Assembly: GCA_037157565.1 (NCBI GenBank) | Contig: JAZHRO010000019.1 | Span: 63,734,501-63,798,500 of the forward strand | Direction of reading: 5' to 3' | Origin: Thalassia testudinum | Taxonomy: Eukaryota; Streptophyta; Magnoliopsida; Alismatales; Hydrocharitaceae | DNA length: 64,000 nt | Shown: positions 268 to 16,584 of the stretch, in pieces | Layout: each line of letters begins with the position of its first letter | How positions within the stretch are numbered: the first letter of the stretch is position 1 | Notes under the pieces: model-generated | What the model was told of the DNA's origin: nothing | The model's input: the letters and a program-made list of their open reading frames with translations, nothing else | The model's database searches: none | Position numbers and translations under genes: made by a program

Positions 268-2652
268 TTACAATAACATCCTCGAGAATCCCTTTGGTGA
301 CTTTATAGACCGATCTGCTAATTGTAATGTCACCTCGGTTGGTTTTAGCTCAGATTCTTCTAGATGGTCAAGTAAGGATGTGGGTATCAGGTTTATGGAT
401 GCACCCAAGTCTAACAATGCTCTATCAAATTGGGTACCACCTATCTTACAGGAAATCAGGGGAGTCCCAGGATCTTTTGCCTTGGGTGGGAGTCTACTAA
501 GGATTACAGAGCTGGCTTGCTCTGACAGAACAATTGGGCTCCCTCCCTTGGTTCGCGGCTTACGCTGGGGTGTACATATATTCTTTAGAAATCGTGCGTA
601 AGCTGGTACGTGGCGGATTGCATCCATCAAGGGGATGTTTATGTGGACCTGCTCAAAGAGCTTGACCAGGTCCTCCTCAGGGACCACGGGTTTGGTGGTC
701 TTCTTTCCCTTGGTCAAGGCCTCGGGAAACGGGATCTTGGTTGGTTCTTCTAGGATAGGTCCAGGTTGTGGATCCGGAACAGCGGTATCTTGGATAACTA
801 TCCTAGGGTCATGGTTATCAGGCTTGGAGTGGTTTGGATAATGCGGGTCTTCAGTTGTTTTACCACTACGTGTTGTTACAGAATTTAATCCGGCCTGATT
901 CTGGTTTGGGTTTGGTAAGAGGGGTGGCTGCTGCTGAAATCCCGCATAAGAAGTTGAGGCTTCCATCTCGTCTGGAGATGGAGTAGGAGGGGCCTGATAA
1001 ATCCATTGAGCGTGGCCTAAATTTGGATTCATAATGCGCTTCTGGGTTGGCACGTTATTTGGGTTAGGAAGAGGTTGGGAAGGGAGTGTGCCTGGCTGGC
1101 GAGAATTTGCCAACTGGGCCAGTTGAGTTTTAACTTCAGTAAGCTCGTCCTTGTGCTGTTTTTGAATAGCCGCATTCGTTTTTTGAATGTCAGCCAGAGT
1201 CTGAAGGATTAGGGACATTTGATCCTGATTTGGCCCTGATGGATAAGTAGGGTTGGGCCGAGGCTGAGGCGGCTGGTAATGACGAGGGGGCTGTGGGCGG
1301 GAATGAAAAGGTGGTCTTTGAGTTTGGGAATTTCCTGCCCACTGAAAATTGGGATGGTTTCGCCATCCAGGGTTGTAAGTGTTGGAGAATGGGTCGTTCT
1401 GGATGGCGTTGAGGTCCTCGCAGGTCTGAGGAACCTCCTGAGAGTCAGGGAAAGGAGGAATGGAGTTCCCCCGGCTGGTGTAGAAAGGATCGGATGATCC
1501 TCCGATCCAAGAATCAGATGGGGATGGATATGGATCCATCCCAGGGGAAGGTCGGTGGAGGATGTTTTGCACAGTTTCCTGTGTGGAGGGAGGTTGTGCA
1601 AAGGAGTTACGCGCGGAGGTGGCTTGCTGCAAGTGCTGAGTCAGCTCATCCACCTTCTTTTCAATGATTGAGACCTTGTCCAATCGACTGGCCATTAATT
1701 CCAGGTCGACTGATGCGGACAGGCCCTGCGTCTCATGTGCTCCCTTAAGATTCGTCGCTGCGCGGGTATTCGTCCTGTCGAATAATCCCATGGAGTCATT
1801 ATTGATGGAGTTCTCGCACATATTTTCGAGAATTTCCCATACGGTGTCTTCATGTTGACCCATGATGTTTCCTCCGTAAGTTGCATTGACGAAAAGGCGG
1901 ATGTCCTCACGGAGTCCCTGGTAAAAAGATTGGACTTGTTCCCATTTAGGAACTCCGTGATGGGGGCACTTTCTCATGAGATCCTGAAAGCGATCCCATG
2001 CCTCATGGAGAGGTTCTCCTGATTGTTGAGTGAAGTGTGTAATCTGATGGCGCAAGGCGTTGGTCCGACCAACGGGAAAAAACTTTTTCAAAAATTCGGA
2101 TTGAAGTTCTTCCCAAGTGTTGATCGGCTGGGTCTGAGTTTGATACCAATGGGCAGCCTTGTCCATAAGAGAAAAGGAGAACATCTTCATGAGAAGAATA
2201 TCCCGATTTTGCGCATCTGATCCAAAAGTGTGGGCCAGATGCTTTAGCTGTTTGATGTGCTGGAAGGGATCTTCAGAATTAAGCCCATGGAATTTAGGTA
2301 TAGCATGAATCATGTTGGGCTTTAATTCGGAATCAGGTCCTCCAGTCGGGATTCTGACTCGAGGCTCAATGGCCACCGCAGCAGGATTGTAGTGGTCCCG
2401 CATCATAGGACGCTGTGGTGGGTGCACGAAGTTTTGGAAGAGGTCATTGAGTCGCTGGAGCTGGTGTTCCAGATTATTTTCTTCCTCAACTGGCTGAGCC
2501 ATGATGGGGGAAGAAGAACTTGGTTCTGAATCAGAAGAGAGAATAATGTGAGGGTGTTGCTGCACAAACACGGGCGTCGAGGCTTGGCCTTGACGAGAGC
2601 GAATTTCTAAAGGAGGTCTTAAGGGTGGTCTTAGGGACCTCCTTCCGTACAT
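268..2652 (-). CDS. gag-pro: E1 gag-protease polyprotein (Athila/Tat-like Ty3/gypsy)
   Basis: A 794-residue uninterrupted frame encoding the structural Gag protein fused to the start of the aspartic protease. Residues 1-60 are basic, then Ser/Pro/Gln-rich. Residues about 115-260 form the retrotransposon Gag core (DKAAHWY near 164, then FLKKFFPVGRT and the HHGVPKW block). Residues 340-640 are a long Pro/Gln-rich region, with no CCHC zinc knuckle that I can see. The protease active-site motif DLGAS sits near residue 748. The frame then ends in an out-of-frame tail just past QLADRS, because of a one-base frame change at about 270-280. The start at 2652 is supported by E2, where the same N-terminus begins at 7249. 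The length and intactness are striking beside the broken copies elsewhere in the window, so E1 is the youngest gag here. In the family, Gag assembles the cytoplasmic particle in which reverse transcription occurs. Confidence 0.9.
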   Translation of the reverse strand: MYGRRSLRPPLRPPLEIRSRQGQASTPVFVQQHPHIILSSDSEPSSSSPIMAQPVEEENNLEHQLQRLNDLFQNFVHPPQRPMMRDHYNPAAVAIEPRVRIPTGGPDSELKPNMIHAIPKFHGLNSEDPFQHIKQLKHLAHTFGSDAQNRDILLMKMFSFSLMDKAAHWYQTQTQPINTWEELQSEFLKKFFPVGRTNALRHQITHFTQQSGEPLHEAWDRFQDLMRKCPHHGVPKWEQVQSFYQGLREDIRLFVNATYGGNIMGQHEDTVWEILENMCENSINNDSMGLFDRTNTRAATNLKGAHETQGLSASVDLELMASRLDKVSIIEKKVDELTQHLQQATSARNSFAQPPSTQETVQNILHRPSPGMDPYPSPSDSWIGGSSDPFYTSRGNSIPPFPDSQEVPQTCEDLNAIQNDPFSNTYNPGWRNHPNFQWAGNSQTQRPPFHSRPQPPRHYQPPQPRPNPTYPSGPNQDQMSLILQTLADIQKTNAAIQKQHKDELTEVKTQLAQLANSRQPGTLPSQPLPNPNNVPTQKRIMNPNLGHAQWIYQAPPTPSPDEMEASTSYAGFQQQPPLLPNPNQNQAGLNSVTTRSGKTTEDPHYPNHSKPDNHDPRIVIQDTAVPDPQPGPILEEPTKIPFPEALTKGKKTTKPVVPEEDLVKLFEQVHINIPLMDAIRHVPAYARFLKNICTPQRKPRTKGGSPIVLSEQASSVILSRLPPKAKDPGTPLISCKIGGTQFDRALLDLGASINLIPTSLLDHLEESELKPTEVTLQLADRSIKSPKGFSRMLL

Positions 2653-3560: not shown

Positions 3561-3578
3561 TCCCCGGCAACGGCGCCA
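3561..3578 (-). other. E1 primer-binding site (tRNA-Asp)
   Basis: On the minus strand the site reads TGGCGCCGTTGCCGGGGA, the complement of the 18 3'-terminal nucleotides (with CCA) of plant tRNA-Asp as I remember it. Five bases separate it from the LTR end. It lies in a hairpin whose arms are CCGTTGC and GCAACGG. Confidence 0.93.
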
Positions 3579-8186: not shown

Positions 8187-8204
8187 TCCCCGGCAACGGC
8201 GCCA
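8187..8204 (-). other. E2 primer-binding site (tRNA-Asp)
   Basis: An 18-nt site identical to that of E1, three bases from the LTR end, embedded in the same CCGTTGC/GCAACGG hairpin. Confidence 0.93.
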
Positions 8205-11012: not shown

Positions 11013-12714
11013 TGCTGCTACAACCCTTCCTTGGTTGTTCTTATTGTATTGCCTCCCTTGTGTGAGCTATCACTTTCTGACGTGCCAGTGATGTGCATAC
11101 ATCTGATTAACCTAAAATGTCTATTAATGCATGTTCTTAGTATCACATTAGCATCATACATTGTAAATAGTGCATAACATGCATAATCATGCATTTAGAT
11201 TAAGTTGTATAAATTGTATAGTAATTGTCTTCTTTCTATGGTTAGGGACAGGATGACTTTTTATCAGGGCCTCGGATCGAAGATCCAACTGTACGGATCT
11301 GATCAAGGCGACGATTGGAGTTCAACGACTCTAAGATCGCCCTAATCGGATATCCGTAGCACTAGATAGAGATCAAGGAACCCTAAAGATCAAGGACCAA
11401 GATGGTGTTAATCCACACCTTAGATGACAAATCCAATTGTACAGATGGATTCGAATCGACGATCGTAGCCTTACGGCGTGGAAATCGATCCAATCCGACA
11501 CCTGTGGCACCATCTACAATACTCAGAAGATGGATGGCCAAGATGGCACCACGTGGTGCCATCTCAGCCGCCCAACCGGCCGCAAGTACCTACCTCAGCC
11601 TTTCCTCTTCATCTGACCAACGCTTCTCTGCCGTTGGATGCTCATCCAATGCTGCAAGGCGCACGCGCATAAAACGAGCACTCGATATAAAAGCGCTCGT
11701 AGCACGTTGGTCGAGCGCTCTATCGAGGACAAAGGGCGCACATTCGAAGCAGCAAGTGCCTCAAATTGGAGCAAGGGCGAGCAGGCGCGTGGGTGTGCGG
11801 AGCTGCACGATCTTGATTGAATGGCGCTACGTAGCTGATAGCGCCCACGCGCGATTGGATGCGCGGCGAGGACGCGAGATCACACGCGGGCGTGTGGAGC
11901 GAGCAGGGATCATTTAAGCCATGATCGAACGGCTATAAGCACGCGGACGTGCGAGTATGTTGCGCGACGTGGAGGTGAGGAGGTGCACGGCACGCGCACA
12001 CAAAGGCCATGTTCAGGCCTTTAGTGACAGATTTATCCGTCACTATAGGTCCTGAATTAATTTTTTCAAATTGTAATGACCAAAATGCCCCCACTCCATG
12101 CAACTATAAAAGGAGACCCCCTCCATATGAATTTCTCTTCCCTTCCTTCTCTTCTCTCCCTCTCCAAAGCTCAAGAGAAGCTTGTCCCACACCCGGGATG
12201 CTCCTCAAGAGATAAAATCAATTTTTCACCCCCATTCCGGAAGCGGATCCCGCGACGACGACGATGTGCTACCTCATTCCCATTCTTCCTACCTCGACCT
12301 CTTTCTTCCCACTCCATTCCTCATCTTCCAGGCGTCGTCTCGTCCGGCTCATCCTCCAAGCGATCGTCGAGGAGGATAACTTCTCTCTCCCATTCCTTTT
12401 TCCTACTTTCTAGTGTAATTTCTTTCTTTCTTAGTTGTACAAACATTTTGCAATATCAAGTAGATGTTCTCTCTCTCTCTCTCTTTCTCTTATTGTCTAT
12501 AGTATTTCATTTCATTGTAATTACTCCACTTTTTAACAAAAACACAAAAAGAATATAATTGAAAATTTTGATCGACGTAGCCTCCCTAAGTTCGACCTGA
12601 GATTTCTATTCTGGTACAAATTTTATTTGTTGAACCTGAATTCTTCGTTATTCAAACTACAATGACAGGTTTTCAAAACCAAATCCGATAGCGTAGTCCT
12701 TTGACGTTTCAACA
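11013..12714 (+). repeat. E3 5' LTR (family B)
   Basis: Plus-strand LTR of about 1.7 kb ending TTTCAACA at 12714. It aligns by eye with the 48534-50369 LTR from the 'GATCCAACTG' segment onwards and shares the CCACGTGG-containing stretch near 11550. TATA (ctataaaag, 12104-12112), a CT-rich microsatellite (12465-12490) and the TTCGACCT block (12588-12598) are present. The 3' end is exact because the PBS region follows. The 5' end is estimated from the length of the related LTRs, and the first 50-100 bp are uncertain. Confidence 0.7.
12104..12112 (+). promoter_or_regulatory. TATA box of E3 LTR
   Basis: CTATAAAAG, followed by a C-rich, then pyrimidine-rich, leader segment, as in the family-B LTR at 49732. 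Confidence 0.65.
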
Positions 12715-12717
12715 TTT

Positions 12718-12792
12718 CGGCGCCGTTGTCGGGGATCGAACCCAGGTCGCCCGCATGATAGGTGGGAATACTCACCACTATACTACAACGGT
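12718..12792 (-). tRNA. tRNA-Asp-derived copy captured at the E3 primer-binding site (not a normal gene)
   Basis: Read on the minus strand, this is a tRNA-Asp from its 5' region (CGTTGTAGTATAG, D arm) through an anticodon arm and an intact T arm (GGGTTCGATCCC) to the acceptor end GGCGCC plus one base where CCA is expected. The anticodon triplet now reads ATC instead of GTC. Against the plant tRNA-Asp sequence I remember, nearly all differences are transitions, and one breaks an anticodon-stem pair. It begins exactly where a PBS should begin, three bases after the LTR end. It covers the position of the post-transcriptionally added CCA, and is followed by a second copy of the LTR end and a normal PBS. 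These facts favour reverse-transcribed primer over a genomic tRNA gene. It is probably not a functional tRNA. Confidence 0.88.
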
Positions 12793-12840
12793 AGGTTTTC
12801 AATACCAAATCCGATAGTGTAGTCCTTTGACGTTTCAGCA
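12793..12840 (+). repeat. Duplicated E3 U5 end
   Basis: AGGTTTTCAATACC to TTTCAGCA repeats the LTR end at 12667-12714 with about three substitutions in 48 bases. Together with the tRNA copy it forms a duplication of roughly 128 bp, LTR end-tRNA-LTR end-PBS. Confidence 0.9.
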
Positions 12841-12843
12841 TTT

Positions 12844-12861
12844 TGGCGCCGTTGCCGGGGA
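12844..12861 (+). other. E3 primer-binding site (tRNA-Asp)
   Basis: A perfect 18-nt TGGCGCCGTTGCCGGGGA, followed by AGCAACG, which can pair back on the site. This is the second, intact PBS. The upstream one at 12718 is the start of the tRNA copy. Confidence 0.93.
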
Positions 12862-14229
12862 AGCAACGATTTTCCGATCTTCTTTTCGCATTTTATGCAC
12901 TTTACTATCTTCTAACTTACTTTCTCTTGTGTCTATTATTTTGTAGAGACCTCCATTAGGGAATCATCAAGCTGTAGATAGAAGTAAAGTGCAGTTGAAG
13001 ATGACTATAAGTGCTCCCCATTTTTCCCCCTCCATAGATTTCATCTATCACATTAAATTCAAATTCTAATTAACCTAGGTGTTTGCATAAATCCTAGGAT
13101 TAGTTTAGTTGTTTGGATTTCCACTCACACTCATTTCACCCTCGCTTATATAAAAAAAAACAAAAAGATAATTTTGTGGGGTAATTTTCAAAATAGACAT
13201 AACATACACCTACATTCAAGGCACTTAACCTACTTGATTTTCTTCTACTCAACTAGATTCTGATATGTGGAACCGGTACACACAAATCAACACATAAAAG
13301 AGTAGAAATCATTCTAGGTTAACCATTTCTGTGTGCCTAACTTAATGGTGCAATTGTGGCCAATTGTTTGAGTTGTTTGGGCTGCACCACTCAACCTAAA
13401 ATCAACTCATCAAGTAGCTTCCTCTTAGGGTTTTCAATCTAGGTTCATACCAGGCACTCCACTTTATTTCTGATTTTAAAGGAAAGTAATCTTCACCCAT
13501 GCTTGAAAACCTGGTTTGCTTCAAACTTGATTGAAATCAACCTAATTCTAAATCTTAAAAGCTACTTAAGCAAGATTTGAACATTAAAATCTACGCATCA
13601 CAAATAATCTTGCTTGAAAATCCTGGTTGTGCACGCACTTACACATATTCAATCAATCATTAAGGGCACAACCCATTTTAAGGGCCCATCACATTCCATA
13701 AGCACTATAATCCCAGGCCTCAAGAAAATCAAGTAGACATTGGCCTTAAGGACTGATTTGCTCATTGGGGCCTAATCTGAGATTGTTTATGATTAACCTA
13801 CTTGTACTGACTAATTTGATGTCTAGCTAGGGGAGTAGCGTCAAACGATCATGGCTGGGGGGTACACTAGGAACCAGAGTCGCAAGCCGAAGGAAGAACC
13901 TTCTCCCCAGTCCCTCCTAACTGGTTGGATTGAGCAGACACAAGTAGAGTAAATCGTTTATAATTTTAAGGCAGGTTCTGGGAGTCTGTAGATCCTTAGG
14001 CTACCCCACTTAAGGACAGGCTTGTTCTGTTGTGCTACAGGGTCCTTATCCCTAGTCCTTCCAACCTTTTCCTAGTTTATGCTGGGAAGAAGGTCATTGA
14101 ATCCCTGATTGGAAGGACCACTAGAGTATTCTAGGAGGCGTAGATTGGATTTTGGATAAATTGATCCCATGGTCGATCAACAGCCTCCTCTGCCCTGAGA
14201 TCCACAGGAGGAATTCTGAAGGCAGCTGG
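12862..14229 (+). other. E3 leader, no gene seen
   Basis: About 1.4 kb of AT-rich sequence between PBS and recognisable gag, with no supported frame. An ATG at 14169 opens a short frame that stops after nine codons and may be the decayed gag start. Confidence 0.6.
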
Positions 14230-15837
14230 AACAAATGCAGAGATGCAGGAATAATTCCAGAGAATGCAGGGCGCTCAGCCCTTGAAGGATTTTTATAATC
14301 CTTCAAATTATGGGGAACATCCCAACATCTAGATTCCGGCTAGAGACGTAGAAATCAAGTCCCAGGTGTTAAGCTATCAAACATTACCATGGGCTTGGCT
14401 CTGAAGACCCGTTTCAACACTTAGAGGACTTGACTACTTTGGTCCAGACCACCAAGGCATGAAACGTGAATGAGGAGCAAATGATCATGAGGCTCTTCCC
14501 CCACTCTCTTAGGGATAAAGCCGCTCATTGGTACAGGACTACAGGAAGACCAATTGCAACATGAAATGAGTTGAAATCAGCCTTTCTGAAGAAATTCTTC
14601 CCTATCGGACGTACCAATGTTTGAGATGGGCAATCACTACCTTTACCCAGCAGTCGGGGGAGCAGTTTCATGTGGCTTGGGAGCGATTCCAGGAGCTATT
14701 GCGGAGGTGTCCACACCATGAGGTGCCGAAATGGCAACTCGTGCAGATCTTCTACCACAGGTTGACTGAGCAACTCAGAAATCATGTGGACGCTTCTTGC
14801 GAAGGCAATTTCCTCAACAAAGATGCAGATAGCGCGCACGATTTGTTTGAGGAAATAAGTAAGAATTCAATCAATCATGCCTCCATTGATACTTTTAACC
14901 GGTCCCAGCAACCCAGATCGAATGTTAATGAAGTCCATGACTCTCATTCATTCGATATGGAATTGATTTGTAATAAACTTGATAAGGTGGACTTGGTTGC
15001 TAAGAGAATGGAAGAGTGGATGGCTGGAAATTCAATGAATAACCCTCGATGCACTCAATCCCAGATTCGAGATTCCATTCGTCACAAGCTCCTTCTAGAT
15101 GGGAGTTCGTGAATCAACTTGATGCGGCTCAACCTACGAGCCAGAATTATTCAGAACCCCACGAGTTCCAAACTGGGGCCTTTGATCCCAGTTTTTCTGA
15201 TCCTTCCCTTTCTTTCTCTCCATCCTCACCCTATGAGGATGTTTGTGCTGTACAGGAGAACGTTAGATCCAACCCCTACTCTAATGCTTATAATCTGGGT
15301 TGGAGAAACCACCCTAACTTTTCGTGGAAAAACCCGGGGCAACAGACCCAATTTTGACCTAGCAACTATGCTCCGCAACGACCAATGGGTCAGGGTCATG
15401 TTTATACTCAGTTGCCCCCGAATCAAGTCAATCAGCCAGCTTGGAATGCCCGTCAACCCATAGGGCAGGCTGATTTGAATCGACAAATGGTAGAGATGCA
15501 AGGATCCATGCTCCAGCTCATGCAGCAAATGAAAACCTCGCTGGACAACTTGCAAACCGAACTCATAGCTAACTCTCCTCAACCCAGATCTCTACCATCC
15601 CAACCTGTACCCAACCCACGGAATATCCTGAATCCGGGCAACCAAGCTCATGGGTACGGAAATCAGAGGGACCCACACGCACATGCTCAAGTGGTTGAGC
15701 AGGGTCCTTCTTCTTCTTTTGCAAATCAACAATTCTTGGCTAATCAAGCCCCTCCAATCTTTCCTAACCCTCCCCAAGACCCAAACTCGTATGCATCCGC
15801 AAATTCTATTACCTTGAGGAGTGGTAAACAAGCATAG
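14230..15837 (+). pseudogene. gag: E3 gag, broken
   Basis: Gag homologous to that of E1: the N-terminal EQMQR stretch, SEDPFQHL near 14410, RDKAAHWYR near 14515, FLKKFFPIGRT near 14590, the HHEVPKW segment near 14720, and a Gln/Pro/Asn-rich C-terminal half ending at 15837. At least three frames are needed to read it, with in-frame stops in the N-terminal third and frame changes near 14620, 15110 and 15370. Several stops are TAG or TGA where relatives have Gln, Arg or Trp codons, consistent with C-to-T decay. Structural protein of the retrotransposon particle; not functional as it stands. Confidence 0.88.
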
Positions 15838-16584
15838 GATCCACAACCACACTGTTCTGATTTACCGAATCCTGAAGAACCTAAGGAGAGAAAGGAGAAT
15901 TCTGGAGAAGAAATCAAGGCTCAGGAACCTGATTCCAAAGATCTGACTCATGTTCCTTTTCCTGAAGCCTTGATCTGATCAAGGAAGAAGAAGTCTGTTG
16001 ATAGTAATGAGGAGCTTCTGAATATTTTCAAGAATGTTAAGATAAATATCCCGCTCCTCGACTCTATCAAGCATATACCTGCTTACGCGAGATTTTTAAA
16101 GGATTTATGTACACAAAAGCGTAAGTCGAGAGAATCTGTTCCGTGGAAGGTGGTACTCTCTAAGCAGGCTAGTTCTGTTATCCTGCACCACCTCCCTCAG
16201 AAAAAGAGAGATCCAGGTGCTCCGTTGATTTCTTGTGTCATCAGAGATTACACTTTTGATAGAGCACTTCTGGATTTGGGTGCATCCATCAACCTAATTC
16301 CGATTTCTCTTTACGAGAAGTTTGGATTAGGTAAACTTCGGCCGACTTTAGTAACGCTGCAGTTAGCGGACCGTTCGATCACAAATCCGCGAGGCGTTAT
16401 TGAAGATGTTATTGTTAAGGTTAAGGATTTCTATTTTCTTATAGATTTCCTTGTCCTTGACATGGATGTGCCCGAAAATCTGAGGAACAGGCCCATCATT
16501 CTGGGGCATCCATTCCTGGCTACCGCTACGGCCAACATTAACTGTGAAAGCGATAGCATGGAAATCGCCTTTGGAGATCAATGA
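15838..16584 (+). pseudogene. pro: E3 aspartic protease region
   Basis: Follows gag after a TAG. It contains the conserved HIPAYARFLK stretch (about 16070), then the protease itself with catalytic motif DLGAS near 16276, QLADRS near 16360 and the ILGHPFLATA flap-end block near 16500. The 16150-16584 part is one open frame of 144 residues, ending in TGA. The family protease cleaves the Gag-Pol polyprotein. A stop near 15977 and the stop at 15837 separate it from Gag. Confidence 0.85.

What the first reader, a model, noticed from the sequence alone, without database searches (positions are those of the whole stretch)
12657..12861. Whole tRNA-Asp primer captured inside an LTR retrotransposon, between duplicated U5 ends
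Seen: LTR end, then an antisense tRNA-Asp copy (12718-12792) in PBS register, then a second copy of the LTR end (12793-12840), then a normal PBS. The copy includes the CCA position (now CCG) and the T, anticodon and D arms. Established: plus-strand strong-stop synthesis copies the tRNA 3' end and normally stops at a modified base (m1A58). Inference: here it ran through the entire primer, and the nascent end (actacaacg) then switched to the matching U5 word (actacaatg, 12657-12663), re-copying U5 and making the tandem structure. This is a fossil of a reverse-transcription error that rarely survives.
Basis: partly seen in the sequence, partly recalled or inferred. Interest (0 to 1): 0.87.

Follow-up and report, generated by a model that had tools for sequence, protein, structure and literature searches.

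The report
Whole primer tRNA copied into retrotransposons
In this plant-like genome, retrotransposon copies repeatedly kept a complete DNA copy of the host tRNA that started their own copying, often with an error at the one tRNA base known to block reverse transcription, so a copying failure known from retrovirus work can be read and counted in genomic DNA.

Summary
Confirmed, and not a one-off. Window 12718-12792 is a full antisense tRNA-Asp (CCA position included) between the end of an LTR (11089-12714) and a second copy of that end (12793-12840), followed by an exact PBS (12844-12861). The host genome (G000, 4.26 Gb) holds many independent cases: 59 places with CCA plus 68 nt of tRNA-Asp at <=3 mismatches, beside 7 gene-like places without CCA. 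In the 55 of 59 whose flanks I read, the copy follows LTR-like sequence and then jumps to varied sites: own U5, PBS, gag, pol, or back on itself. The base opposite A58 (m1A58 in retroviral primers) is A instead of T in 13 of 69 copies, against 3 A/T transversions in 1518 cells elsewhere and 0 of 7 genes. This supports reverse transcription of mature, modified primer. The landing word in U5, ACTACAACGAC, is the complement of tRNA-Asp nt 1-11 and lies (<=2 mismatches) in 34 of 40 U5s sampled without regard to it: probably a second pairing site for the primer. Two TSD-flanked solo LTRs, perhaps three, carry the tRNA.

The parts
11089..12714 (+). 5' LTR of a tRNA-Asp-primed LTR retrotransposon, TGATG...TTCAACA (start inferred)
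   Evidence: Located; TSD-flanked solo LTRs of the family (L005, L176) start TGATGTAAAC and end TTCAACA
12656..12666 (+). U5 word ACTACAATGAC, complement of tRNA-Asp nt 1-11 with one mismatch; inferred landing site of the nascent plus strand
12718..12792 (-). Full-length tRNA-Asp copy (antisense to the element), with the CCA position (now CGG on +)
   Evidence: ARAGORN; Rfam
12718..12735 (+). PBS1, the first 18 nt of the tRNA copy, 2 mismatches
12736..12736 (+). Base opposite tRNA A58 (T in this copy, so no signature here)
   Evidence: alignment index 18
12782..12792 (+). Copy of the tRNA 5' end fused to U5 (ACTACAACGGT): the junction
12793..12840 (+). U5b, second copy of the LTR end (AGGTTTTC...TTTCAGCA)
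12844..12861 (+). PBS2, exact tRNA-Asp primer binding site
14570..15112 (+). gag-like reading frame of the same or a nested element
   Evidence: PF03732, E 1.9e-06
15979..16584 (+). protease-like reading frame (below Pfam cut-off)
   Evidence: PF13650, 23.1 bits, cut-off 24.3

Best explanation
During reverse transcription the plus-strand strong-stop DNA copied U3-R-U5 and then the whole covalently attached tRNA-Asp primer, bypassing m1A58 and running off at the tRNA 5' end. Its new 3' end, ACTACAACGAC, is the same word that these elements carry in U5, so it re-annealed to the U5 complement on a minus strand (the same one or the sister in the particle). There it re-copied the U5 end and the tRNA 3' end, stopped this time before A58, and finished by the normal PBS transfer. 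Shown: the structure, its recurrence, the CCA position, endings at nt 1 in copies that landed elsewhere, the A58 error in the set, the mostly independent origin of copies, and the U5 word. Inferred: the order of events, which minus strand was used, and that U5 pairs with the tRNA 5' end in the RNA. Later cycles could prime from PBS2 and carry the tRNA inside the LTR, as TSD-flanked solo LTRs suggest.
For: 59 CCA-bearing and 7 gene-like places at <=3 mismatches over 71 nt, reversed-pattern control 0. 58': A 13, C 2, T 54 of 69 after dropping 4 shared-junction duplicates; A/T transversions elsewhere 3 of 1518 cells; binomial tail 2e-22; genes 7 of 7 T. Exact 26-mers through A58, genome-wide: T 41, A 16, C 1, G 1. 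In rows that did not land in their own U5, where the last 11 nt can only be tRNA, 22 of 38 agree to nt 1 (C-to-T and G-to-A allowed). U5b best matches own U5a in 30 of 34. L060 has two tRNA copies and three U5 ends, as two rounds would give. U5 word <=2 mismatches in 34 of 40, shuffles 2-3%. Solo LTRs with 5-bp TSDs and the family's known start: L005, L176.
Against: This copy reads T opposite A58, so it carries no signature itself; the case rests on its relatives. In 4 of 34 rows another copy's U5a matches U5b better. In U5 re-entries the last 11 nt may come from U5 rather than from the tRNA. No element was shown with the insert in both LTRs: upstream of L175 (L013) an LTR-like match is followed by an ordinary PBS, and L178 gave only reverse-strand matches to the L171 LTR. 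A solo LTR with the insert could come from a crossover inside U5b. 28 of the 59 exact 26-mers stop agreeing with the tRNA more than 3 nt before its 5' end. m1A58 in this species' tRNA-Asp is assumed from general knowledge, not measured.
Confidence: 0.9

Rival explanations
1. A genomic tRNA-Asp gene or a tRNA-derived SINE inserted into, or recombined with, the LTR/PBS region, and U5 was duplicated separately.
For: Gene-like tRNA-Asp loci exist in the genome (7). SINE insertion was proposed for tRNA-bearing LTRs in other TRIMs (PMC10886601, passages).
Against: The copied CCA sits in PBS register after LTR-like sequence in the 55 of 59 CCA-bearing places whose flanks I read. Copies that land outside U5 end at the mature 5' end in 22 of 38. 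A58-specific T-to-A change, absent from 7 of 7 genes. Landing sites differ among copies.
Confidence: 0.03
2. One ancestral capture inherited by a lineage, with the structure spreading by retrotransposition or duplication.
For: Some junctions are shared: L010/L011, L098/L099, L101/L102, L110/L111, L070/L071. Solo LTRs with TSDs carry the insert.
Against: U5b matches its own U5a best in 30 of 34. Captures sit in several LTR families with different U5s and junctions.
Confidence: 0.05
3. Minus-strand origin: a minus strand that had copied past an unoccupied PBS into U5 joined, by the 11-nt homology, the tRNA end of another minus strand.
For: Gives the same final junction; two genomes per particle are established for LTR retroelements (recalled).
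Against: Needs a DNA copy of the tRNA in any case, and does not by itself explain landings at PBS, gag, pol and snap-back sites.
Confidence: 0.1

Closest known systems
[quoted passage not shown] seen only as cited in PMC12220202, passages)
   Same: A reverse-transcribed tRNA kept next to an LTR end.
   Different: One circular clone, described as a spurious primer, 4 bases missing at the tRNA 5' end; here integrated copies, the cognate primer, often to nt 1, many events, U5 re-copied.
Plus-strand product P1 of HIV-1 (reads an unmodified tRNA to its 5' end; PMC13191261, passages)
   Same: The same intermediate: strong-stop DNA that ran through the whole primer.
   Different: Described there as not serving as an active template; here it was rescued into genomic copies.
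Bipartite PBS and extended tRNA contacts of Ty1 and Ty3 (PMC5371799, passages)
   Same: A second genomic site pairs with the primer besides the 3'-end site.
   Different: In Ty3 the acceptor stem, T and D arms are contacted; here the U5 word would pair with nt 1-11, which hold the 5' strand of the acceptor stem. That review also says the PBS is not perpetuated by copying the tRNA; here tRNA sequence is inherited.
Helenus TRIMs (PMC10886601, abstract, passages and sections 3.5-3.6)
   Same: tRNA-like sequence inside LTRs.
   Different: No complementarity was found between the Helenus tRNA and its PBS, and SINE insertion was proposed; here the tRNA is the primer itself, antisense and contiguous with the PBS.

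Membership tests
tRNA-Asp-primed LTR retrotransposon (Ty3/gypsy) | PBS complementary to tRNA-Asp 3' end directly after the LTR | tested here: met
   12844-12861 exact; complement of the tRNA-Asp 3' end including CCA
tRNA-Asp-primed LTR retrotransposon (Ty3/gypsy) | gag and pol downstream in the order typical of Ty3/gypsy | tested here: inconclusive
   gag PF03732 and a sub-threshold protease; RT/INT of this copy not delimited; no second copy of the LTR among matches of >=60 nt within the window
Athila or Tat lineage | RT-RH-INT phylogeny | not tested
   tRNA-Asp is listed among primers of non-chromoviruses in PMC6317226 (passages); no tree was made
Primer tRNA read-through product | Mature tRNA with CCA copied in PBS register and read to its 5' end | tested here: met
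   Window copy 12718-12792; relatives; 22 of 38 non-U5 landings agree to nt 1
Primer tRNA read-through product | Misincorporation at m1A58 | tested here: met
   Met for the set (13 A, 2 C of 69), not for the window copy, which reads T
Helenus / TRIMp3 | tRNA-like sequence with conserved A and B boxes in short non-autonomous LTR elements, unrelated to the PBS | tested here: not met
   tRNA here is antisense and is the primer; LTR is 1626 bp
Bipartite PBS | Demonstrated pairing of the second site with the primer | not testable with these tools
   Only complementarity and conservation shown

The most novel reading that the evidence does not exclude
tRNA-Asp-primed plant retrotransposons carry a conserved U5 site that pairs with the 5' end of the primer (nt 1-11), so that both strands of the acceptor stem are held by the genome. 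This second primer site makes full-length tRNA the preferred primer, and turns read-through of m1A58 into re-entry at U5, which yields LTRs with a tRNA inside that can transpose again.
Probability: 0.55. Interest if true: 0.87.

Novelty: new variant of a known kind. Interest (0 to 1): 0.82.

Why it matters
It gives a genome-scale record of a step known from retroviral biochemistry: how often plus-strand synthesis passes m1A58, what base is put in, and what happens next. In the captured copies at least, intact mature tRNA rather than a tRNA fragment was the primer; a 2025 review (PMC12786077, passages) describes plant priming by partial tRNAs. It shows that primer sequence can be inherited, which a review says does not happen in Ty3 (PMC5371799, passages). 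It offers an origin for tRNA-bearing LTRs and for stray antisense tRNA 'genes' in annotations. The U5 word makes a second primer contact directly testable.

Tried and rejected
Single odd copy: rejected, one search already gave other matches through the tRNA and many more. Genomic tRNA gene insertion: rejected on CCA, mature 5' end, A58 and flanks. Chance repeat: rejected.

Single-linkage clustering of the 40 sampled U5s collapsed to 5 groups because the threshold was too loose; average linkage gave 11, 8 or 6 families at 0.30, 0.35, 0.40, of which 8, 7, 5 have a median member with the word at <=2 mismatches; 1 of 2000 shuffled words did as well as the real one on the 8 representatives.

Search for a full element with the insert in both LTRs: two 9.9-kb upstream stretches read, none found. 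TSD search: 9 loci (L169-L176, L005) tried; two (L005, L176) have a TSD next to the known family start. L172 (GTACA, 1966 bp, start TGATTAG) is weaker: its LTR start is defined by the TSD alone, and such hits also arose by chance in other loci (e.g. six for L170). U5 word for tRNA-iMet: not seen in the 5 iMet captures (best 3-6 mismatches), so the word is not universal. tRNA-Lys control: the search did not complete, so the covariation test of the word was not done.

Rows: 74 capture rows were used; L086 (one-base gap) was left out of the per-position tally, and L011, L099, L102, L111 dropped as duplicates. 21 of the 74 came from U5- or junction-based searches and favour U5 landings; the 53 capture rows among L069-L128 came from tRNA similarity. 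Of the 59 CCA places, the flanks of 4 were not fetched (C15:123966478, C45:55415182, C62:20083120, C70:57213292).

Papers: 10 searches; in their listings (titles, starts of abstracts) I saw no report of recurrent full-length primer capture or of a U5 word complementary to the tRNA 5' end. Passages of PMC2829016 and PMC9278108 gave nothing of the kind. PMC1456326 is not held.

Full report
WHAT IS THERE. The window comes from a 4.26-Gb genome in 237 contigs; I take it as a plant from its size, the plant snoRNA hit and the element types (inference). An LTR begins TGATG at 11089 (start inferred by similarity) and ends TTCAACA at 12714. After a 3-nt spacer come 75 nt of antisense tRNA-Asp, 12718-12792, found by ARAGORN and Rfam. 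Its first 18 nt are a PBS with 2 mismatches. Then the LTR end is repeated, 12793-12840, followed by the spacer and an exact PBS, 12844-12861. The repeat begins inside the tRNA: 12656-12735 and 12782-12861 align without gaps at 90% because the tRNA 5' end copy (ACTACAACGGT) lines up with the U5 word (ACTACAATGAC).

IT IS RECURRENT. The first genome search with 12500-12900 already gave other copies matching through the tRNA and U5b. A pattern over the tRNA/U5 junction gave 120 places at <=3 mismatches, part of them plain U5. together gave 21 distinct places, the window included, with the tRNA body behind an LTR end (L007 continues into other sequence, the other 20 into a second U5). A pattern of 71 nt of antisense tRNA-Asp with CCA gave 66 places, reversed-pattern control 0; 59 begin with TGG (CCA copied) and 7 do not. 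I read the flanks of 55 of the 59 and of all 7. The 7 without TGG show no LTR end or U5 word and are taken as genes; behind the 55 the tRNA copy follows LTR-like sequence of several families (by eye). For a rate, exact words: 26-mers that run through A58 number 59 (T 41, A 16, C 1, G 1), against 30,625 exact 18-nt PBS, about 0.2%. The 33 of these 59 that were not in the list were fetched; they stop agreeing with the tRNA anywhere from nt 48 to nt 1, 5 of 33 within 3 nt of the 5' end.

THE PRIMER WAS READ AS RNA. Over 73 capture rows without gaps, the column opposite A58 is T 57, A 14, C 2, while each other T or A column shows at most one T-to-A or A-to-T change outside the last four nucleotides; genes are T in 7 of 7. 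After dropping four shared-junction duplicates: A 13, C 2, T 54 of 69, against 3 A/T transversions in 1518 cells elsewhere, binomial tail 2e-22. Searches that cover this base penalise the A; one search does not cover it. Rows found by tRNA similarity alone give A 9, C 1, T 42 of 52. Other frequent changes are C-to-T and G-to-A, as expected of methylated old DNA; two frequent sites (index 31, 21 of 73, and index 8, 8 of 73) also vary among the genes, 1 of 7 each. A58 is the m1A stop of plus-strand synthesis in HIV-1 (PMC13191261, passages). The iMet primer shows the same kind of event: 9 places, 5 with TGG; of those 5, one runs to nt 1 (L213) and another has C opposite A58 (L216).

WHERE THE TAIL LANDS. 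48 of 69 rows agree with the tRNA to its nt 1 when C-to-T and G-to-A are allowed, but in U5 re-entries the last 11 nt could be U5. In the 38 rows that landed elsewhere 22 agree to nt 1 (L086 not scored; L118 counted as a miss for one mismatch). Among the 53 rows found by tRNA similarity I place 16 in their own U5 (one search list; the script marks 15, of which I leave out L076, which reaches U5 only after about 35 nt, and add L082 and L126), and the script marks 5 as snap-back copies of the element's own strand. By eye 8 re-enter the LTR end or PBS (L074, L077, L078, L083, L096, L108, L109, L117), L069 the leader, L072 and L100 gag, L070, L071, L090 and L092 pol (compared with frames); the rest are unassigned. 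U5b matches the U5a of its own copy best in 30 of 34 U5 re-entries (two duplicate pairs included), so these arose many times. L060 holds U5-tRNA-U5-tRNA-U5, as two rounds of read-through would give.

THE U5 WORD. Forty exact PBS places were taken in list order from contig C1 without regard to U5. The word ACTACAACGAC, complement of tRNA-Asp nt 1-11, is present 26-75 nt upstream of the PBS with <=2 mismatches in 34 of 40 (13 exact); shuffled sequences or words give 2-3%. Families are related in part, so these are not 40 independent tests; 7 of 8 families have it. Across the 8 representatives the columns for nt 1-11 are 62-100% as expected; conservation falls on the 5' side (at most 50%), less cleanly on the 3' side, where some columns still reach 62-75%. 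Of the 38 capture rows that did not land in U5, 35 have the word at <=2 mismatches; of the 33 copies have it within 80 nt. So it is not just an effect of ascertainment. I infer pairing with the primer's 5' end; duplex energy of the 11-mer is -15.4 kcal/mol. It was not seen for iMet in 5 captures.

INHERITANCE. Two solo LTRs have U5-tRNA-U5 inside, the family's known start TGATGTAAAC and identical 5-bp target duplications: L005 (CCTGG, 1756 bp) and L176 (GGCAT, 1910 bp). L172 (GTACA, 1966 bp) is a possible third, its start defined by the TSD alone. L175 and L171 look like 3' LTRs with the insert (a G-rich stretch before TGATG). Upstream of L175 an LTR match of 88% is followed by an ordinary PBS without insert, so I could not show the insert in both LTRs of one element.

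MECHANISM. Established: minus strand primed by tRNA; plus-strand strong stop copies 18 nt of tRNA and stops before m1A58; a product that runs to the tRNA 5' end (P1) is described as not active (PMC13191261, passages). Here such a product was used. The simplest path to the window structure is that the tail re-annealed to the U5 complement, re-copied U5 and 18 nt of tRNA, stopped, and transferred by the PBS. The order and the strand used are inference.

NOVELTY. Single captures of tRNA next to retroviral LTRs are known (as cited in PMC12220202, abstract and passages). The listings of ten paper searches showed no recurrent full-length capture, no A58 signature in genomic copies and no U5 complement of the tRNA 5' end; most subscription papers are not in that library.

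Noticed in passing
L060:1296-1626: Double capture: U5-tRNA-U5-tRNA-U5-PBS, as two successive read-throughs would give.
   Followed up: partly
L070, L071, L090, L092: Captures with different LTR ends land within a few nt of the same pol spot (TGAGACCGGAGAAATC) with three different junctions: a landing hotspot without explanation.
   Followed up: no
L098/L099, L103, L106, L128, L203: After the tRNA the strand continues as an inverted copy of its own upstream sequence, as if it had snapped back and copied itself (L203 by eye).
   Followed up: partly
G000:C15:123961336, 123966478, 123971623: Three near-identical captures about 5.14 kb apart on one strand, probably a tandem array; the flanks of the outer two were read and are alike.
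   Followed up: no
L212-L216: tRNA-iMet primer captures in other LTR-like sequences, one to nt 1 and one with C opposite A58.
   Followed up: partly
window 1951-2058: Rfam plant snoR71 hit (43.1 bits, cut-off 40) opposite a retrotransposon gag frame; may be spurious.
   Followed up: no
window 3561-3578 and 8187-8204, minus strand: Two more tRNA-Asp PBS in the window; the first has ACTACAACG in U5, the second only a weak form.
   Followed up: yes
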